This document shows positions 957-20,808 of a stretch of DNA of 33,783 nt, piece by piece. Position 1 is the stretch's first letter, and the number at the start of each line of letters is the position of its first letter. The position numbers and the translations under genes are program-made. Source of the stretch: Desulfobacterales bacterium (GTDB lineage Bacteria > Desulfobacterota > Desulfobacteria > Desulfobacterales > UBA2156); NCBI GenBank assembly GCA_027025555.1, contig JALVQN010000127.1, positions 1 through 33,783 on the forward strand, read 5' to 3'. The notes under the pieces are model-generated. The model saw only the letters and a list, made by a program, of their open reading frames with translations, did not search any database and was not told where the DNA came from.

Positions 957-1271
957 TGAAAAGTTCAGGATGATATGGAAAACTTCAGGATAAGGGCAGG
1001 TTTGAAAGATACATTGCGGAATATTGGCGATGATGTCTTTTACCTGGTTTGTTTTTTGTCTCGGTGAAGATTATGATGGTATTTTATTTTTACTATTGCT
1101 AAAAATTTGTCAAGAGTGAAGACCTGACCCCTTTTGGGTTAAATCTTTTTTTCTCTTCCAAAACGTGCATTACACCCACTAAAGCGTGGCTTCTTCCCGC
1201 CTGACGTTTCCTTTCTTGGGATAAAAGAAAACATAGTTTGAGGTTGTGACTTTTAAAAAGGGAGTCGCAAT
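957..1271 (+). other. AT-rich intergenic region with one solo repeat copy
   Basis: No credible gene lies in these 315 bases, which are visibly richer in A and T than the flanking genes. Two imperfect 14-nt direct copies (958-971 and 978-991, one mismatch) lie just after the transketolase stop. A solo copy of the dispersed 24-nt repeat lies at 1108-1131. Its end forms a weak ACCC/GGGT stem (1127-1139) followed by a T-run (1146-1152), which could act as a weak terminator. A leader for the next gene presumably starts in the right half, but no convincing promoter was seen. Confidence 0.6.
1108..1131 (-). repeat. Solo REP-like repeat copy
   Basis: This copy matches the 24-nt family consensus in reverse orientation (GACCCC end at 1126-1131). 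No inverted partner was found in the surrounding intergenic space, unlike the other eight copies, which are paired. It could be a remnant of a decayed pair. Confidence 0.9.
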
Positions 1272-3177: not shown

Positions 3178-3201
3178 GGGGTCAGGTCTTCACTCTTGAC
3201 A
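3178..3201 (+). repeat. REP-like repeat, left arm of the 177-bp pair
   Basis: Exact match to the consensus, starting GGGGTCAGG and ending CTTGACA. It begins one base after the stop codon of the dehydratase gene. Confidence 0.95.
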
Positions 3202-3331
3202 CTTTTTTGGACAGAAGCGATTTCTGTCGGCGTGAAAAGTAACCGGTTGCGCTTTTGTAAACAAAGATCCGTTTTTACAACTATGAATAAGGCAAATGAT
3301 GGCGGGGGCCATCGTCGCAATGAGATGAATC

Positions 3332-3354
3332 TGTCAAGAGTGAAGACCTGACCC
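3332..3354 (-). repeat. REP-like repeat, right arm of the 177-bp pair
   Basis: This copy is one base short at the GGGG end: it ends GACCCT rather than GACCCC. The next gene's ATG starts only three bases beyond it. Confidence 0.93.
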
Positions 3355-3357
3355 TGG

Positions 3358-4752
3358 ATGGATGAGAAGATGAGTCGGGTTTTGAGCGGTGTGGTCTATG
3401 GGATTCTCGCCACGATACCGGTGCTGTTCGGGGCGGTGCAGCCGTGGGTGTGGTCCGCCTACACGGTGTTTATCTTTTTGGCCTATGCCTTGAGCGTGTG
3501 GCAGAGAGGATCCCGGGACAATCCGGGCATGGGCTGGGCGGGACAGGGGGTGCTGGGTATCTTTTTCGCGTGGTCCGTTTTTCAGATCGTTCCGCTTCCA
3601 CCCGCGATCCTCAAACTGCTTTCCCCTGTAAAACAGGCCAATGCAGCGCGCGCCTTCTCACTGATGGGTGAAGCACTCCCATGGCAAAGCCTTTCCTATT
3701 CTATGCGTGTTTCCCTGGCTGAGATCGCTTTTTGCCTGGGGCTTTTTGCGTTTTACCAGGTTTTAACTAGGGTCATCCGGGAAGAACGCCGGTTCAAGAC
3801 GGTGGTGACGCTGATGATGATGCTGGGAGTGGCGGAAGCCCTATATGGCATCATCCAAGCCCTGGTACCGGCGGTGGGCGTGCTGTGGACGGATGCCTCT
3901 TCTGCCGGATTTGGCAATGCCCGGGGTACATATATCAACCGGAACAACTTCGCCGGGTTCATGGAGATGGTGATCCCCGTAACCCTTGGCTTTGCCATGG
4001 CCGTATCGTACTGGCCGGTGCGGGGTAAACTGAAAAAAATTCTGGGCTATGACCGTCTCAACAAAAGCCTCTTTTTTGCCATGATGCTGGTGGTCATGCT
4101 CTTGGCCCTGGTCTTTTCCAAGTCCCGGGCCGGGATCATGGGGGCTGCGGTGGCGGTTTTGGCCTTTTTCATCGTGAGCCGGATTGCGATGAAAAGAAAA
4201 AGCAAAGTGGTCTGGCTTTTAATAGGGACTGTGCTTTGCTTGTTTTTAGTGTACGGGTTGAGCATGGGGTTTGGACCGGTGATCGAGCGGTTTTTGCGTA
4301 TCGGCAAGGATAACAGCCGGCTGGATATCTGGAAGGATACCTTGCGCCTCATCCAGGATCATCCCCTGGGGGTGGGGCTGGGCAATTATGAGACCGTCTT
4401 CCAGGTGTACCACGTGCACTTCAATCCGAACCTGCGGGTCTTGGATGCCCACAATGACTACCTGCAGGTCTTGGCCGAAAGCGGCTGGCCGGGATTTGTG
4501 GTCTTGGCCGGGGGGTTTTTGTATTTCTTGGTGCAGCGGTTTCGTCGCATAGCGAATATGAATCCGGATGAGGATCCCTTTTCTTTTTTTATTTCCCTGG
4601 GGGCCTTGTGTGGTCTGACAGCCCTTTTTTTTCACAGTGGGTTCGATTTCAACCTGCAGATTCCGGCCAACGCCCTCTATTTTGTCACCCTCATGGCCCT
4701 TGTCCGCCGGGGTCAGGTCTTCACTCTTGACACTCAGACTAGCCCTCAATAA
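3358..4752 (+). CDS. O-antigen ligase/polymerase family membrane protein, C-terminus rewritten by an element
   Basis: This 464-residue polytopic membrane protein has about ten or more hydrophobic segments and the Wzy_C/O-antigen ligase signatures: GTYINRNNFAGFMEM, FSKSRAGIMG, PLGVGLGNYETV and AHNDYLQ (His365), the last in the large periplasmic loop. The family either polymerises repeat units (Wzy) or transfers glycan to an acceptor (WaaL). Family and context do not separate these roles. The start is uncertain: ATG at 3358 is three bases after a repeat element, and an in-frame ATG at 3370 is equally possible. Neither has a good ribosome-binding site, perhaps because the element removed it. From codon 451 the frame runs into the left end of the transposase element, so roughly the last 13 residues (GQVFTLDTQTSPQ) come from mobile DNA. 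Confidence 0.88.
   Translation: MDEKMSRVLSGVVYGILATIPVLFGAVQPWVWSAYTVFIFLAYALSVWQRGSRDNPGMGWAGQGVLGIFFAWSVFQIVPLPPAILKLLSPVKQANAARAFSLMGEALPWQSLSYSMRVSLAEIAFCLGLFAFYQVLTRVIREERRFKTVVTLMMMLGVAEALYGIIQALVPAVGVLWTDASSAGFGNARGTYINRNNFAGFMEMVIPVTLGFAMAVSYWPVRGKLKKILGYDRLNKSLFFAMMLVVMLLALVFSKSRAGIMGAAVAVLAFFIVSRIAMKRKSKVVWLLIGTVLCLFLVYGLSMGFGPVIERFLRIGKDNSRLDIWKDTLRLIQDHPLGVGLGNYETVFQVYHVHFNPNLRVLDAHNDYLQVLAESGWPGFVVLAGGFLYFLVQRFRRIANMNPDEDPFSFFISLGALCGLTALFFHSGFDFNLQIPANALYFVTLMALVRRGQVFTLDTQTSPQ
4709..4732 (+). repeat. REP-like repeat, left end of the transposase element
   Basis: Exact consensus copy inside the 3' end of the O-antigen ligase frame, where it is translated as GQVFTLD. Its last six bases (4727-4732) are a perfect TTGACA. 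Confidence 0.95.
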
Positions 4753-4755
4753 AAG
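4727..4755 (+). promoter_or_regulatory. Candidate promoter for the transposase
   Basis: A perfect TTGACA (4727-4732) formed by the inner end of the left repeat is followed, after 17 bases, by TAAAAG (4750-4755), which matches four of six -10 positions. The predicted start point near 4762 is just upstream of the ribosome-binding site at 4769-4773. The element would therefore carry its own promoter. Confidence 0.45.
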
Positions 4756-4764
4756 AGTCTGAGT
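4732..4764 (+). promoter_or_regulatory. Hairpin in the transposase leader
   Basis: ACTCAGACT (4732-4740) and AGTCTGAGT (4756-4764) are perfect 9-base inverted repeats separated by 15 bases. The structure spans the candidate promoter spacer and ends four bases before the AGGAG site. It could limit transposase expression or form part of the element end. There is no T-run after it, so it is not a standard terminator. Confidence 0.6.
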
Positions 4765-4779
4765 CATGAGGAGACGAAC

Positions 4780-5733
4780 ATGGCACGTCCCTTGAGAATC
4801 GTCTATCCGGGCGCCTTTTATCACGTTACCTCCCGGGGCAACGAAAAAAAGGCGATATTCAAAAGCAATGGGGACCGATCGAAATTCCTTGAATATCTCC
4901 AATCGGCAAATGATCGGTATAATGCCGTCATTCACGTGTATTGCCTGATGGAGAACCATTACCACCTGCTCCTGGAAACACCATCAGGAAACCTTCCCCA
5001 GATCATGAGGCATATCAATGGTGCCTACACCACCTATTTCAACATCAAGCGAGACCGAAACGGCCACCTGTTCCAGGGGCGATATCAGGCCATATTGGTG
5101 GAACAGGATGTGTACGCCAAAGAACTTTCAAGATACATTCATTTAAATCCGGTAAGGGCCGGCGTGGTGGGAAGTCCGGAGGCATATCCCTGGTCGAGTT
5201 ACCTCTTTTATATTGGAGCACAGAAACCGCCTGCGTGGCTTCATCGAGACTTTATCCTTGGGTATTTCGGGGAAAACAGGATTGTGGCACAGAAAAAGTA
5301 CAAGGACTTTGTAAAAGCACTGGCGGGAAAGGCATACGAAAGCCCGATGGAAGCCGTGGTGGGTGCTACGGTGCTCGGTTCTGACGAATTCATCTCCAAT
5401 ATAAAAGAAGAATTCTTGGTAGATGAGATGCCGAATAAGGATGTTCCGGCTCTTAAAGTACTGGCCCCGAGAATATCGATGCAGGAGATTTTTAAATCAG
5501 TGAATGGGATCTTTGACAGTGACGCCAGACTCAGAAGAAATGTGAAAATGTATCTCTGCCGGAAGTATACCCCTGAGAAACTGCTGGCCATCGGAAAGCA
5601 TTTTCAAGTGGGCGAATCCGGGGTGTCCCAGGCCTGCCGAAGGATGCAACAGCGAATCGAGCAGGATCCGGCATTGAAAAAAAAGATCGCAAAGATAGAG
5701 GAGAGAATCAGGTTGTCAAGAGTGAAGACCTGA
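4780..5733 (+). CDS. REP-associated tyrosine transposase (Y1/HUH, RAYT) with C-terminal DnaA-like HTH
   Basis: This 317-residue Y1_Tnp-domain protein has an HUH metal motif at His60-Tyr61-His62 within MENHYHLLLETP and a likely catalytic Tyr119 in RYIHLNPVRAG. The opening PLRIVYPGAFYHVTSRGN is typical of the RAYT family. Such enzymes nick single-stranded DNA next to a hairpin and form a 5'-phosphotyrosine. A C-terminal extension ends with a helix-turn-helix near 267-292 (IGKHFQVGESGVSQACRRM) that resembles the DnaA C-terminal DNA-binding domain and may read the repeat. AGGAG at 4769-4773 supports the start. The last residues, LSRVKT and the stop, are encoded by the right-hand repeat. No frameshift or missing catalytic residue is seen, so it may be active. 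Confidence 0.93.
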   Translation: MARPLRIVYPGAFYHVTSRGNEKKAIFKSNGDRSKFLEYLQSANDRYNAVIHVYCLMENHYHLLLETPSGNLPQIMRHINGAYTTYFNIKRDRNGHLFQGRYQAILVEQDVYAKELSRYIHLNPVRAGVVGSPEAYPWSSYLFYIGAQKPPAWLHRDFILGYFGENRIVAQKKYKDFVKALAGKAYESPMEAVVGATVLGSDEFISNIKEEFLVDEMPNKDVPALKVLAPRISMQEIFKSVNGIFDSDARLRRNVKMYLCRKYTPEKLLAIGKHFQVGESGVSQACRRMQQRIEQDPALKKKIAKIEERIRLSRVKT

Positions 5734-5737
5734 CCCC
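5714..5737 (-). repeat. REP-like repeat, right end of the transposase element
   Basis: Exact inverted copy. It supplies the transposase stop codon (TGA 5731-5733) and ends seven bases before the next start codon. Confidence 0.95.
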
Positions 5738-5744
5738 GGGGAAG

Positions 5745-6536: not shown

Positions 6537-7726
6537 TGAAAAAAGCGGTGCTTTCGCTCTTTCTAACAGCCCTCGGCGTCTGGCTCCTCCTCTTTTCCTG
6601 GCAGCAGCGGGAAGCGGCCCTTGAAACTTTCCAGCCCACCCTTGAAGCGGCCGCCCGCTTGAAGGCCTTGCCGGATGTGCAAAACCGTGTCGCTTTTCAA
6701 CAGTGGTTTGAAAACCGGCCCAAAGCGGCCATGCGGCTTTTTAAACAGGCCCTTTCCGGCAATTTTTTGCTGGTGGATGCCTGGCTGAAGCTGGGGGAAA
6801 TCGAGGCCGCCCGGGGCAACAAGGAGCAGGCCATCGCGATCCTGCGTTTCACGAAGCATCTTTCCCCCGGCGTGCTGCGATGGCAGTGGCAGCAGGCCAT
6901 GTTGGCCCTGGAGTTGAACTTGAGGGATCTCTTCCATCGTTTCATCAATGTGCTCATCGCCTCTCCCAGGTACCGGCAAAACGCCCTTTTTGTCCTTGAC
7001 CAGGAATACCAGGGCAATGCCGAAAGGGTAACGGATGTGCTGGTTGCCGAGAATCTGCCCGTTTACCTGGCCTGGTTGATGCAAGGGCGCCGGGTGGAGG
7101 ATACCCTGGTGGTTTGGGACAAGATGACCGCTTTCCAGAAAAAGGATCCCAAAATGCATCTCCGCTACGTTGATTTTCTCCTTCACAATCATCGGGTGGC
7201 CCGGGCCAAGGCAGCCTGGGGGAAAAGCGGATTGACCCATCCGGGATTTGAGAAAGAGATCACCCATGGGGGTTTTGACTGGCGCTTTTACAATCCCAAG
7301 GATCAACGATGGCATTTCAAAAGGACCTTCAATTCGGATCCGAACCGGTTGTACGTGGCCCAGATCACCTTTTTCGGGAAGAAAAACATCGATTTTCACC
7401 ACCTCTATCAAATCTTTCCGGTGGAACCCGGTGCCTCCTATACCCTTGCCTTTGAGTGGCGCAGCCAGGGTCTGAGCACGGATCAACGCCCTTTTATGGA
7501 AGTCTTCGGCTATGATTGCAAGGGACTGTATGCCAAAAGCGGCATGGTCCCAAAGGATACCGATTGGCAGACCGTGGAGATTGCCTTCACCGTGCCGGCG
7601 GGATGTGAGGCGGCCCAAGTCCGGTTGCGGCGCCTGCCAAGCAAGCGATTTGATTCCAAGATAGAAGGCCGACTGTGGCTGGATAATTTCCACCTGAACA
7701 AATTGGGGTCAGGTCTTCATTCTTGA
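6536..7726 (+). CDS. Membrane-anchored TPR-like protein of the polysaccharide cluster
   Basis: A 396-residue protein of unknown exact function. One N-terminal hydrophobic segment (about residues 3-22) looks like a signal anchor. Residues 30-240 are helical with TPR-like pairs such as AWLKLGEIEAARGNKEQAI. The last third resembles a beta-sandwich of carbohydrate-binding type (YTLAFEWRSQG, WQTVEIAFTVPAGCEAAQVR, LWLDNFHL). This suggests a periplasmic scaffold or glycan contact in export, which is inference. I chose ATG 6536 over 6524 because GGAAG sits five bases before it and it overlaps the phosphatase stop. The C-terminal GSGLHS and the stop codon are encoded by the repeat element at 7705, so the native end was replaced. 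Confidence 0.8.
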   Translation: MKKAVLSLFLTALGVWLLLFSWQQREAALETFQPTLEAAARLKALPDVQNRVAFQQWFENRPKAAMRLFKQALSGNFLLVDAWLKLGEIEAARGNKEQAIAILRFTKHLSPGVLRWQWQQAMLALELNLRDLFHRFINVLIASPRYRQNALFVLDQEYQGNAERVTDVLVAENLPVYLAWLMQGRRVEDTLVVWDKMTAFQKKDPKMHLRYVDFLLHNHRVARAKAAWGKSGLTHPGFEKEITHGGFDWRFYNPKDQRWHFKRTFNSDPNRLYVAQITFFGKKNIDFHHLYQIFPVEPGASYTLAFEWRSQGLSTDQRPFMEVFGYDCKGLYAKSGMVPKDTDWQTVEIAFTVPAGCEAAQVRLRRLPSKRFDSKIEGRLWLDNFHLNKLGSGLHS

Positions 7727-7728
7727 CA
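7705..7728 (+). repeat. REP-like repeat (variant), left arm of the 102-bp pair
   Basis: Consensus copy with one substitution, CATTCTTGAC in place of CACTCTTGAC. It is read in frame as the last codons of the TPR-like gene. Confidence 0.95.
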
Positions 7729-7782: not shown

Positions 7783-7806
7783 TGTCAAGAATGAAGACCT
7801 GACCCC
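7783..7806 (-). repeat. REP-like repeat (variant), right arm of the 102-bp pair
   Basis: It carries the complementary substitution of the left arm (AAGAATGAAG). It ends eleven bases before the wzc-like start codon. Confidence 0.95.
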
Positions 7807-12959: not shown

Positions 12960-13811
12960 TTAGGGCTGCTTGGGGCTGGCGGTGTTGTTATCGTCACCGC
13001 CGTTGTTACCGAAAAAAAGCATTCCCCCGATGATGCCGGCGGATCCGGCGAGGACAGCGCCGCTGCCCAAAAGCGCCCCGGCCGCTACTCTGCATTTTTT
13101 CTTGCATTCATCCCGTTTGTCACCCGGAGGGTATTTCTCCTCACAGAGTTTATAGCAGTTGCATTTTTCCTTGCATTTATCCTGTTTGTCACCCGGAGGG
13201 TATTTCTCCTCACAGAGTTTATTGCAATTTTCCTTGTTTTGGCCGGGAAGCGTAGCCTGGGCCAAAAGGAAGCGCTGTCCGGATTTGATTTTTCTTTCCC
13301 CGTCGGCCGTGGAAAGGATCATGGCACCGCCTTCAATCACTCCGATTTCCGCTGTTTGGCCGCTCACCGAGACATACCCTTTTAAAAGCGTGCTGTCCAC
13401 TGAGGCTTTGAGGACAACTTCTTGGATCACCACGGCGCCCCTGGGCGTGATCACGGTGATGGGTTGGGGCAGGGCCGTGATGCCGAAATAGACGCGGCCA
13501 TCTTGGAGGGCGAGCTGTCGGCCGTTTTTCGGCGTTCCGATCATCAAGGTGCTTTTATCGGCGGCCACCAGGTAAAGGGAATCCAGCTTGATGCCGCATT
13601 TGCCTTCCACCTTGAGAATTTTTCCTTCGGGCAGGGGCGACTCGGCCGTCAATTCCGCCACCTTGATCCTGCCGTCAAAAACTTGGATTTTACCGTTGGG
13701 GATAACCCGGGGCCCTCCCAGGGTGGCAGCGAAGCCCGATCCGGCAAAGACCAGGACACAGAGGATGGACAACGCCTGAAAAAAGCGTTTCTTTTTACCA
13801 AAGCGTTCCAT
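12960..13811 (-). CDS. FecR-like secreted protein with duplicated twin-CX3C module
   Basis: A 283-residue protein of unknown function. A signal peptide (cleavage near GFAA, residue 29) precedes a FecR-like beta-rich region (about 30-185; ITPRGAVVIQEVVLKASVDS). Residues 196-240 hold two tandem 23-residue units, each C-x3-C-x12-C-x3-C (Cys196, 200, 213, 217 and Cys219, 223, 236, 240), sharing the core LCEEKYPPGDK. A glycine/alanine-rich hydrophobic segment (about 242-267) and an Asn/Asp tail end the protein. Twin CX3C motifs usually form a disulfide-locked helical hairpin, which would suit an oxidising periplasm. AAGGGAAA upstream supports the start. It lies beside the export lipoprotein gene but is separated from it by a terminator. 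Confidence 0.75.
   Translation of the reverse strand: MERFGKKKRFFQALSILCVLVFAGSGFAATLGGPRVIPNGKIQVFDGRIKVAELTAESPLPEGKILKVEGKCGIKLDSLYLVAADKSTLMIGTPKNGRQLALQDGRVYFGITALPQPITVITPRGAVVIQEVVLKASVDSTLLKGYVSVSGQTAEIGVIEGGAMILSTADGERKIKSGQRFLLAQATLPGQNKENCNKLCEEKYPPGDKQDKCKEKCNCYKLCEEKYPPGDKRDECKKKCRVAAGALLGSGAVLAGSAGIIGGMLFFGNNGGDDNNTASPKQP
13091..13228 (-). repeat. 69-bp tandem duplication within the FecR-like gene
   Basis: Two adjacent 69-bp copies (13091-13159 and 13160-13228) differ at only a few bases. They encode the two twin-CX3C units. The near-identity suggests a recent in-frame duplication or ongoing homogenisation. Confidence 0.9.
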
Positions 13812-19910: not shown

Positions 19911-20690
19911 ATGCTGAGCAAGCGCATCATCGTGTGTTTGGATGTTCGGGACGGAAAGACCACCAAGGGGATCCAATTCAAGGATAACGTCGACATCGGG
20001 GATCCGGTGGAGATGGCACGCCTGTACTATGAAACCGGGGTGGATGAGATTGTCTTTTACGATATCACCGCGTCTTACGAGAAGCGGGAGATCATGATCG
20101 ATGTGGTCCGGCGCGTGGCGGAGACCATTTTCATCCCCTTTTCCGTGGGCGGCGGGATCCGGAATGTGGAGGATATGCGCGCCGTGCTTTTGGCCGGCGC
20201 CGAAAAGATCAGCGTCAATTCCGCCGCGGTCCGGGATCCTTCCCTTATTTCAAAGGGGGCGGAAGCCTTCGGGAGCCAGTGCATCGTCCTGGGGATGGAT
20301 GTCAAGCATGTGGGCCCCAGGCCGGGCATCCCCTCGGGATATGAGATCGTCATCAACGGCGGCAGGACCGACATGGGGATGGATGCCCTGGAATGGGCCC
20401 GGGAAGCGGAACGCCTCGGGGCGGGCGAGATCTGCCTCAACGCCATCGACGCGGACGGCACCCGGGACGGCTATGAACTCCGTTTGACGGCGCTGATCTC
20501 CGAAAACGTGGGGATTCCCGTCATCGCATCAGGCGGAGCAGGCAAACCGGAGCATCTGTACGATGTGCTCACGAAGGGCAAGGCGGACGCCGCTCTGATT
20601 GCCTCCATGGTCCATTACGGCACCTATACGCTTGGCCAGATCAAGGCTTACCTGGCAAATCGCGGCCTCAAGATCCGCCAAACCTGGTAG
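19911..20690 (+). CDS. hisF: Imidazole glycerol phosphate synthase, cyclase subunit HisF
   Basis: A 259-residue (beta-alpha)8-barrel protein with Asp11 in [13 protein letters not shown], Lys19, Asp130 in VLGMDVKH, the SVGGGIR phosphate loop and [13 protein letters not shown]. It uses ammonia from HisH to form imidazole glycerol phosphate and AICAR. The N-terminal stretch [20 protein letters not shown] departs from the commoner RVVKGVNF version, matching a variant I associate with some Desulfobacterota. The stop TAG (20688-20690) shares its last G with the first base of a repeat element, so the element lies immediately after the coding sequence. Confidence 0.92.
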
Positions 20691-20713
20691 GGGTCAGGTC
20701 TTCACTCTTGACA
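20690..20713 (+). repeat. REP-like repeat, left arm of the 119-bp pair
   Basis: Exact consensus copy. Its first G is the last base of the hisF stop codon. Confidence 0.95.
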
Positions 20714-20784
20714 CTTTGTCGAAGGTGGCCAGTACATTCTTTTAAAAAATGCCTGAGAGTTCCCGAAAAGCGGGGGGGGGGGTC

Positions 20785-20808
20785 TGTCAAGAGTGAAGAC
20801 CTGACCCC
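20785..20808 (-). repeat. REP-like repeat, right arm of the 119-bp pair
   Basis: Exact inverted copy. On the minus strand it encodes the last residues and stop codon of the NUDIX gene. Confidence 0.95.

What the first reader, a model, noticed from the sequence alone, without database searches (positions are those of the whole stretch)
3178..5737. A RAYT and its REPIN-like satellites: nine copies of a GGGG-headed hairpin repeat
Seen: a 24-nt repeat occurs nine times (1108, 3178, 3332, 4709, 5714, 7705, 7783, 20690, 20785). Eight copies form four inverted pairs with GGGG outward, of 177, 1029, 102 and 119 bp. Only the 1029-bp pair holds a gene, an intact Y1/HUH transposase. On the GGGG strand each repeat can form GTCAGG paired with CTTGAC (one G-T wobble, 8-nt loop) preceded by GGG. 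Known: RAYT enzymes act on REP sequences made of a short guide tetranucleotide (often GTAG or GGAG) 5' of a hairpin, and REPINs are head-out REP pairs. Inferred: this is a RAYT/REPIN system with a GGGG guide and very short satellites in a Desulfobacterota-like genome.
Basis: partly seen in the sequence, partly recalled or inferred. Interest (0 to 1): 0.82.

Follow-up and report, generated by a model that had tools for sequence, protein, structure and literature searches.

The report
TIR-flanked tyrosine transposase with satellites
The window carries a known but little-studied bacterial mobile element (a single-strand-cutting transposase framed by 24-base inverted repeats) plus gene-less pairs of the same repeat, and its relatives carry stuttered duplications at the repeat ends that suggest where such enzymes cut.

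Summary
In detail: nine copies of GGGGTCAGGTCTTCAYTCTTGACA, eight of them in four outward-facing pairs, one pair framing an intact Y1/HUH gene. The gene is not a classical GTAG RAYT. It is a TIRYT (TnpA-Y1 subclass 2.1, DnaA-like C-terminal HTH), a type already described with GGGGWSAS terminal inverted repeats (TIRs) and dispersed TIR families, so this is a new member of a known kind. The proposed per-repeat hairpin is not supported: it folds no better than shuffles, shows no covariation, and is absent in most relatives. What is conserved in TIRYT elements from several phyla is an 11-nt outer head, GGGTCARRYCT, just outside the gene. Copy density is highest where close TIRYTs occur. In a related genus, 55-bp TIR pairs are present or absent between species. 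Apparently new: TIR ends carry tandem "stutter" duplications of outer flank plus GGGGTC(A), 39 against 0.4 expected, with breakpoints at the outer edge and at the CA of GGGGTCA. They occur equally in short and 1-kb pairs, almost only outward, and vary between species at one orthologous element. Best reading: the enzyme nicks its own TIR there. That cutting step is inferred, and slippage at the repeat remains a rival.

The parts
4780..5733 (+). TIRYT gene (Y1/HUH tyrosine transposase, 317 aa); HUH H60-Y61-H62, catalytic Y119, DnaA domain IV-like HTH around residues 235-310; its stop codon TGA lies inside the 3' TIR
   Evidence: NF047646 82.1 bits (cut-off 80), PF01797 52.6 bits, Bac_DnaA_C 26.6 bits (below cut-off); profile matches to DnaA structures and TnpAREP 4er8; AlphaFold model pLDDT 91, matches 4er8 and DnaA DBD 3pvp
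4707..4732 (+). left TIR of the TIRYT element (CCGGGGTCAGGTCTTCACTCTTGACA), 47 bp before the ATG
   Evidence: 26-nt perfect inverted pair; same place and orientation in relatives
5714..5739 (-). right TIR of the TIRYT element, overlapping the end of the gene
   Evidence: in relatives the outer GGG most often lies 3 nt past the stop codon
4727..4755 (+). possible promoter: TTGACA of the TIR (4727-4732) as -35, 17-nt spacer, TAAAAG (4750-4755) as -10
   Evidence: 10 of 12 matches; 15 of 76 upstream TIRs against 4 of 67 downstream ones; weak, post hoc
3178..3201 (+). left TIR of satellite pair A
3332..3355 (-). right TIR of satellite pair A (AGGG end)
7705..7728 (+). left TIR of satellite pair C (ATTCTTGAC variant)
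7783..7806 (-). right TIR of satellite pair C (same variant as its partner)
   Evidence: the whole pair folds as a long hairpin, z -8.5
20690..20713 (+). left TIR of satellite pair D, abutting the hisF stop codon
20785..20808 (-). right TIR of satellite pair D, supplying the last codons and stop of the NUDIX gene
1108..1131 (-). single TIR copy without a partner

Best explanation
This is a TIRtron: a TIRYT gene framed by two inverted TIRs, with non-autonomous TIR pairs as satellites. The enzyme recognises the TIR (outer head GGGGTCAGGTCT; inner part lineage-specific), probably through its HUH domain acting on single-stranded TIR and its DnaA-like HTH. It cuts and rejoins one strand at the TIR end, moving or multiplying any DNA framed by two head-out TIRs. 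The cut is placed at the CA of GGGGTCA, with a second site at the outer edge. Abortive or repeated nicking at an inserted element leaves tandem copies of flank plus GGGGTC(A). Shown: anatomy, family, conserved head in fixed places, co-divergence of TIR and enzyme, presence/absence of 55-bp pairs between related species, and end-specific stutter that arises in place. Inferred: that the enzyme makes the cut, the exact phosphodiester, and that satellites move in trans.
For: Head motif present in correct orientation beside 78 of 88 TIRYT genes with full flanks (both sides in 55); wrong orientation 2 and 1. TIR similarity tracks protein similarity, Mantel r 0.42, 0 of 999 permutations; flank control r 0.10. 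Copy density tracks TIRYT. Related genus: 77, 51, 33 and 0 TIR copies in four species, the matching TIRYT in those with 77 and 33. 55-bp pair at G318 C4:6138-6191 absent from G273. Stutter: 39 duplications with junction at TIR positions 0-8 in 270 heads against 0.37 expected, GGGGT control 3 of 958. In 395 genomes GGGGTCA-N3-17-GGGGTCARGTCT 121 times against 2 for the inverted-head control and 0 reversed. G318 pairs fetched without regard to stutter: 18 of 57 heads, junction at 6-7 in 13; random 19 of 20,000. Same rate in 1-kb pairs (27/141) and short pairs (19/91). Orthologous TIRYT end: one unit in G318, two in G273. Known TnpAREP enzymes cut at CT or CA (PMC8266576).
Against: No cleavage was measured. 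The window's own nine copies show no stutter; only one of 17 copies in this genome does (C193). G003 has 12 copies and G296 51 without a detected matching TIRYT. Only one clean empty site was found; a second (G296) is mixed with other changes. The start of the duplicated unit shows only a weak CA preference (11 of 35, post hoc), so the joining partner is not explained. The three short pairs of the window have unrelated interiors, so how they formed is unclear.
Confidence: 0.74

Rival explanations
1. The stutter duplications are replication slippage: the TIRs fold into a long hairpin, polymerase stalls a few bases into the stem and slips back, without any cut by the enzyme.
For: A whole short pair folds strongly (z -8.5 and -6.1); junctions lie 5-7 nt into the stem; both outer flanks of an element are weakly similar in inverted orientation (0 of 2000 permutations), as template switching would give.
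Against: The rate is the same for arms 0.8-1.3 kb apart as for arms under 250 bp, and unpaired copies still show 10%. Of 164 other inverted-repeat ends 5 had such duplications, and all 5 look like TIRYT-type ends missed by the filter. The junction sits at one position in many lineages.
Confidence: 0.3
2. A classical RAYT/REPIN system: each repeat is a REP with a GGGG guide at the foot of a small hairpin, and pairs are REPINs.
For: Head-out pairs, low-copy chromosomal gene, REP-associated HUH family; TGAC complementary to the head's GTCA is enriched in tails (50 of 138 against 3.4); some relatives' TIRs fold well (z -2.3 and -3.6).
Against: Window repeat folds no better than shuffles; no covariation in the stem (43 of 50 paired, 43.2 in shuffles); most TIRs lack TGAC; the enzyme is of the subclass reported without REPs (PMC6006769).
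Confidence: 0.12
3. An ordinary insertion sequence with TIRs whose short pairs are MITEs made by internal deletion.
For: Uniform element size in relatives (mostly about 0.91-0.96 or 1.01-1.08 kb), symmetric TIRs, presence/absence between species.
Against: No target-site duplication signal; Y1/HUH fold, not DDE; interiors of the window's short pairs are unrelated to the TIRYT ends.
Confidence: 0.08
4. The pairs are kept mainly as regulatory or 3'-end elements (terminators, stop-codon suppliers) and no longer move.
For: Copies abut gene ends and supply stop codons; strong pair hairpins.
Against: Presence/absence and unit-number differences between related species.
Confidence: 0.12

Closest known systems
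TIRtron / TIRYT (Di Nocera et al. 2013, PMC3733652)
   Same: Y1 gene flanked by inverted TIRs with GGGGWSAS (here GGGGTCAG); other TIR copies as dimers or clusters in the genome
   Different: Its searchable text does not mention Desulfobacterota members, the stutter at TIR ends, or a cut site
TnpA-Y1 subclass 2.1 with Bac_DnaA_C-like tail (Quentin et al. 2018, PMC6006769)
   Same: Long class 2 protein, NHYH and YIHLNP motifs, DnaA-like HTH
   Different: That study found no REP-like sequences; here TIRs and dispersed TIR pairs are documented
RAYT / REPIN (GTAG REPs; Bertels and Rainey 2011, PMC3116915)
   Same: Related HUH enzyme, outward-facing repeat pairs as non-autonomous units
   Different: GGGG head and no supported single-repeat hairpin; far fewer copies
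IS200/IS605 family
   Same: Y1/HUH catalytic fold
   Different: Symmetric TIRs instead of distinct subterminal hairpins, Y---NP instead of Y---Q, extra C-terminal domain

Membership tests
TIRYT / TIRtron | Y1 transposase gene flanked by inverted TIRs | tested here: met
   26-bp perfect TIRs at 4707-4732 and 5714-5739
TIRYT / TIRtron | TIR carries GGGGWSAS | tested here: met
   GGGGTCAG fits W=T, S=C, A, S=G (motif from PMC3733652)
TIRYT / TIRtron (subclass 2.1) | class 2 motifs NHYH/NHVH and Y-x-x-x-NP plus C-terminal HTH, often Bac_DnaA_C-like | tested here: met
   NHYH, YIHLNP; Bac_DnaA_C below Pfam cut-off in the window protein but found in 12 of 16 aligned members; fold match to DnaA DBD, TM 0.78 of the target, rmsd 1.9
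TIRYT / TIRtron | other copies of the TIR elsewhere in the genome (in some members) | tested here: met
   about 15 strong copies, mostly pairs
RAYT / REP | GTAG or GTGG tetranucleotide at the foot of the repeat | tested here: not met
   GGGG
RAYT / REP | each repeat forms a stable, structure-conserved hairpin | tested here: not met
   z -0.53; no covariation
RAYT / REP | enzyme binds and cleaves single-stranded repeat at CT or CA | not testable with these tools
   needs biochemistry; the stutter junction at CA is only suggestive
IS200/IS605 | Y---Q catalytic motif and distinct subterminal hairpins at the two ends | tested here: not met
   YIHLNP; ends identical and inverted
MITE of a DDE insertion sequence | target-site duplication | tested here: not met
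   no direct-repeat signal across 59 elements or in direct flank similarity

The most novel reading that the evidence does not exclude
TIRYTs are active single-strand nucleases with symmetric ends that nick their own TIR at GGGGT(C)A and at the outer edge. Each failed round copies a few bases of flank plus GGGGTCA outward, so TIR ends carry a readable record of enzyme activity, and any DNA between two head-out TIRs can be moved.
Probability: 0.42. Interest if true: 0.75.

Novelty: new member of a known kind. Interest (0 to 1): 0.58.

Why it matters
TIRYT-type genes (subclass 2.1) were found in about 15% of the species surveyed by Quentin et al. (2018), yet their DNA substrate, cut site and mobility were left open. 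The conserved head, the fixed element layout and the end-specific stutter give a concrete substrate and a predicted cleavage point that one oligonucleotide assay could confirm or reject.

Tried and rejected
Clean empty sites in the window's own genus: too diverged (about 75% identity) and intergenic regions replaced, so only absence of the element could be shown. Plasmid and phage collections as sources of empty sites: only distant TIRYTs, one weak phage hit. Target-site duplications: no signal. Hairpin covariation: none. Internal-deletion origin of the short pairs: interiors unrelated. Promoter inside the TIR: only a weak post hoc excess (the general scan did not list it). Cutting at matching CA sites on both sides of a stutter unit: only 11 of 35 units start with CA. 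G296 as an empty site for the TIRYT itself: it is a deletion ending exactly at the outer edge of the right TIR, not a simple empty site. Loci L227-L292 were partly picked through the stutter pattern and are not used for junction statistics.

Full report
Observation. Eight copies form four pairs with GGGG facing out; pair B frames a complete gene. A second Y1 gene in the genome (C26) is framed by its own, different inverted repeat (GGGGGACGTTGTTGAC...).

The gene. The 317-aa product matches NF047646 'REP-associated tyrosine transposase' (82.1 bits, cut-off 80) and Y1_Tnp, with a weak Bac_DnaA_C match at its C end. The HUH pair (H60, H62) and Y119 are invariant in 54 aligned relatives. An AlphaFold model (pLDDT 91) matches the E. 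coli TnpAREP structure 4er8 first and, with its tail, the DnaA DNA-binding domain 3pvp (TM 0.78 of the target, rmsd 1.9). DnaA's box-reading motif DHTTV (from general knowledge) is replaced by an xSxVS-like motif, so reading of DnaA boxes is unlikely.

What family. Quentin et al. 2018 place proteins with this tail in subclass 2.1, for which they found no REPs, and equate most of it with the TIRYTs of Di Nocera et al. 2013, whose TIRs share GGGGWSAS and can occur as dispersed dimers. The window's GGGGTCAG fits that consensus. The object is therefore a TIRtron, not a new kind of REP system.

TIR anatomy across phyla. 80 relatives came from public assemblies of Desulfobacterota/deltaproteobacteria, Nitrospirota, Omnitrophota, gamma- and betaproteobacteria and others. 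Beside 88 TIRYT genes with complete flanks the head GGGTCARRYCT-like motif lies in the correct orientation at 78 (both sides 55), wrongly oriented at 2 and 1. It sits mostly 44-108 bp before the ATG and usually 3-25 bp after the stop; very often the TGA of the head is the gene's own stop codon, as in the window. The fourth G is kept in about 80%, and the two ends of an element agree at positions -2 and -3 more than chance, so the TIR reaches slightly beyond GGGG. The head pattern was written after seeing some of these loci; orientation, position and co-divergence are the independent parts. The inner half varies by lineage and co-diverges with the protein (Mantel r 0.34-0.43, 0 of 999; control 0.10-0.13).

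The hairpin. The single repeat folds at -1.4 kcal/mol, no better than shuffles. TGAC complementary to the head's GTCA is enriched in tails (50 of 138 against 3.4), but the next stem positions show no covariation and most TIRs lack it. An alternative for the window's type is that TTGACA serves as a -35 box with a -10 17 bp on, which is only a lead. A whole pair does fold strongly (z -8.5, -6.1).

Satellites and mobility. Across 95 relatives, TIR-like density is 4.4 per Mb (median) in the four genomes with a close TIRYT, 0.60 with weaker ones and 0.39 with none; G003 is an exception with 12 copies, one of them beside a fragment matching the start of the gene. In a related genus four species carry 77, 51, 33 and 0 copies of GGGGTCAGGTCTCNACATATGACA, mostly as 55-bp pairs; a TIRYT 48-49% identical to P0001 is present in the species with 77 and 33. 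The pair at G318 C4:6138-6191 is absent from the orthologous site in G273 (about 87-91% identical flanks). No target-site duplication is seen.

Stutter. Outer flanks of TIRs often contain tandem units made of a few flank bases plus GGGGTC(A), for example CACAGAATAAGGGGTCA twice. In 270 distinct heads there were 39 such duplications with the junction at TIR positions 0 to 8, against 0.37 expected from random positions in the same loci; other GGGGT sites gave 3 of 958. Junctions peak at position 1 (outer edge) and at 5-6 (the CA of GGGGTCA). Duplications starting inside the TIR are rare (2). In 395 further genomes the pattern GGGGTCA-N3-17-GGGGTCARGTCT occurs 121 times in 40 genomes, the inverted-head control twice, the reversed pattern never; not every one of the 121 was checked as a true tandem unit. 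In G318 elements fetched by TIR alone, 18 of 57 heads are stuttered, 13 with junction at 6-7, against 19 of 20,000 random positions. The own genome shows one case (C193, TAACACCGGGGTC twice). Five of 164 other inverted-repeat ends had it, and all five look like TIRYT-type ends missed by the filter, one being GGGGACAG in a P. aeruginosa plasmid. The rate is 21% in short pairs, 19% in pairs 0.8-1.3 kb apart and 10% in unpaired copies, which speaks against simple hairpin slippage. At one orthologous TIRYT the right end has one unit in G318 and two in G273, so the units arise in place; in G296 the TIRYT is gone by a deletion ending exactly at the outer edge of the right TIR.

Mechanism. TnpAREP enzymes of other subclasses cut single strands at CT or CA (PMC8266576). 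The stutter junction at the CA of GGGGTCA and at the outer edge fits nicking of the TIR by the TIRYT, followed by faulty rejoining or repair. This step is inferred. I found no description of the stutter in the papers searched, though tandem reiteration of GTAG REP dimers with flanking DNA is mentioned by Di Nocera et al.. Most subscription literature was not searchable.

Verdict. Observation confirmed; interpretation partly right (related enzyme, real satellites) but the precise kind is TIRtron/TIRYT and the hairpin guide model is not supported. The element itself is a new member of a known kind; the stutter and the conserved head are the parts that could surprise a specialist.

Noticed in passing
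window 7705-7728, 20785-20808, 4709-4752, 5714-5733: TIRs supply the last codons or stop of several ORFs: GSGLHS* ends both the TPR gene and the NUDIX gene, the Wzy gene reads through a TIR, and the TIRYT stop lies in its own TIR.
   Followed up: partly
G000:C26 (L019): A second Y1 gene in the same genome with its own different inverted repeat GGGGGACGTTGTTGACAAAGTTGACTTATTG.
   Followed up: no
G054:C1:3849493-3894223: About a dozen TIRYT-like genes in one 45-kb stretch of a nearly finished genome.
   Followed up: no
L144, L146: Identical TIRYT insertion with identical flanks inside an Rhs-like gene in records named Rheinheimera and Paraglaciecola: recent transfer or contamination.
   Followed up: no
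L265 (G296:C69) 6618-6620: The TIRYT seen in G318 and G273 is missing through a deletion whose one end is exactly the outer edge of the right TIR.
   Followed up: partly
L313-L332: Many TIR pairs of G318 sit inside another palindromic repeat, TAGTACTACAGTGG...CCACTGTAGTACTA; 7 of its ends tested show no stutter.
   Followed up: partly
window 13091-13228: A 69-bp tandem duplication, 93% identical.
   Followed up: no
window 20772-20782: A run of 11 G inside satellite pair D.
   Followed up: no
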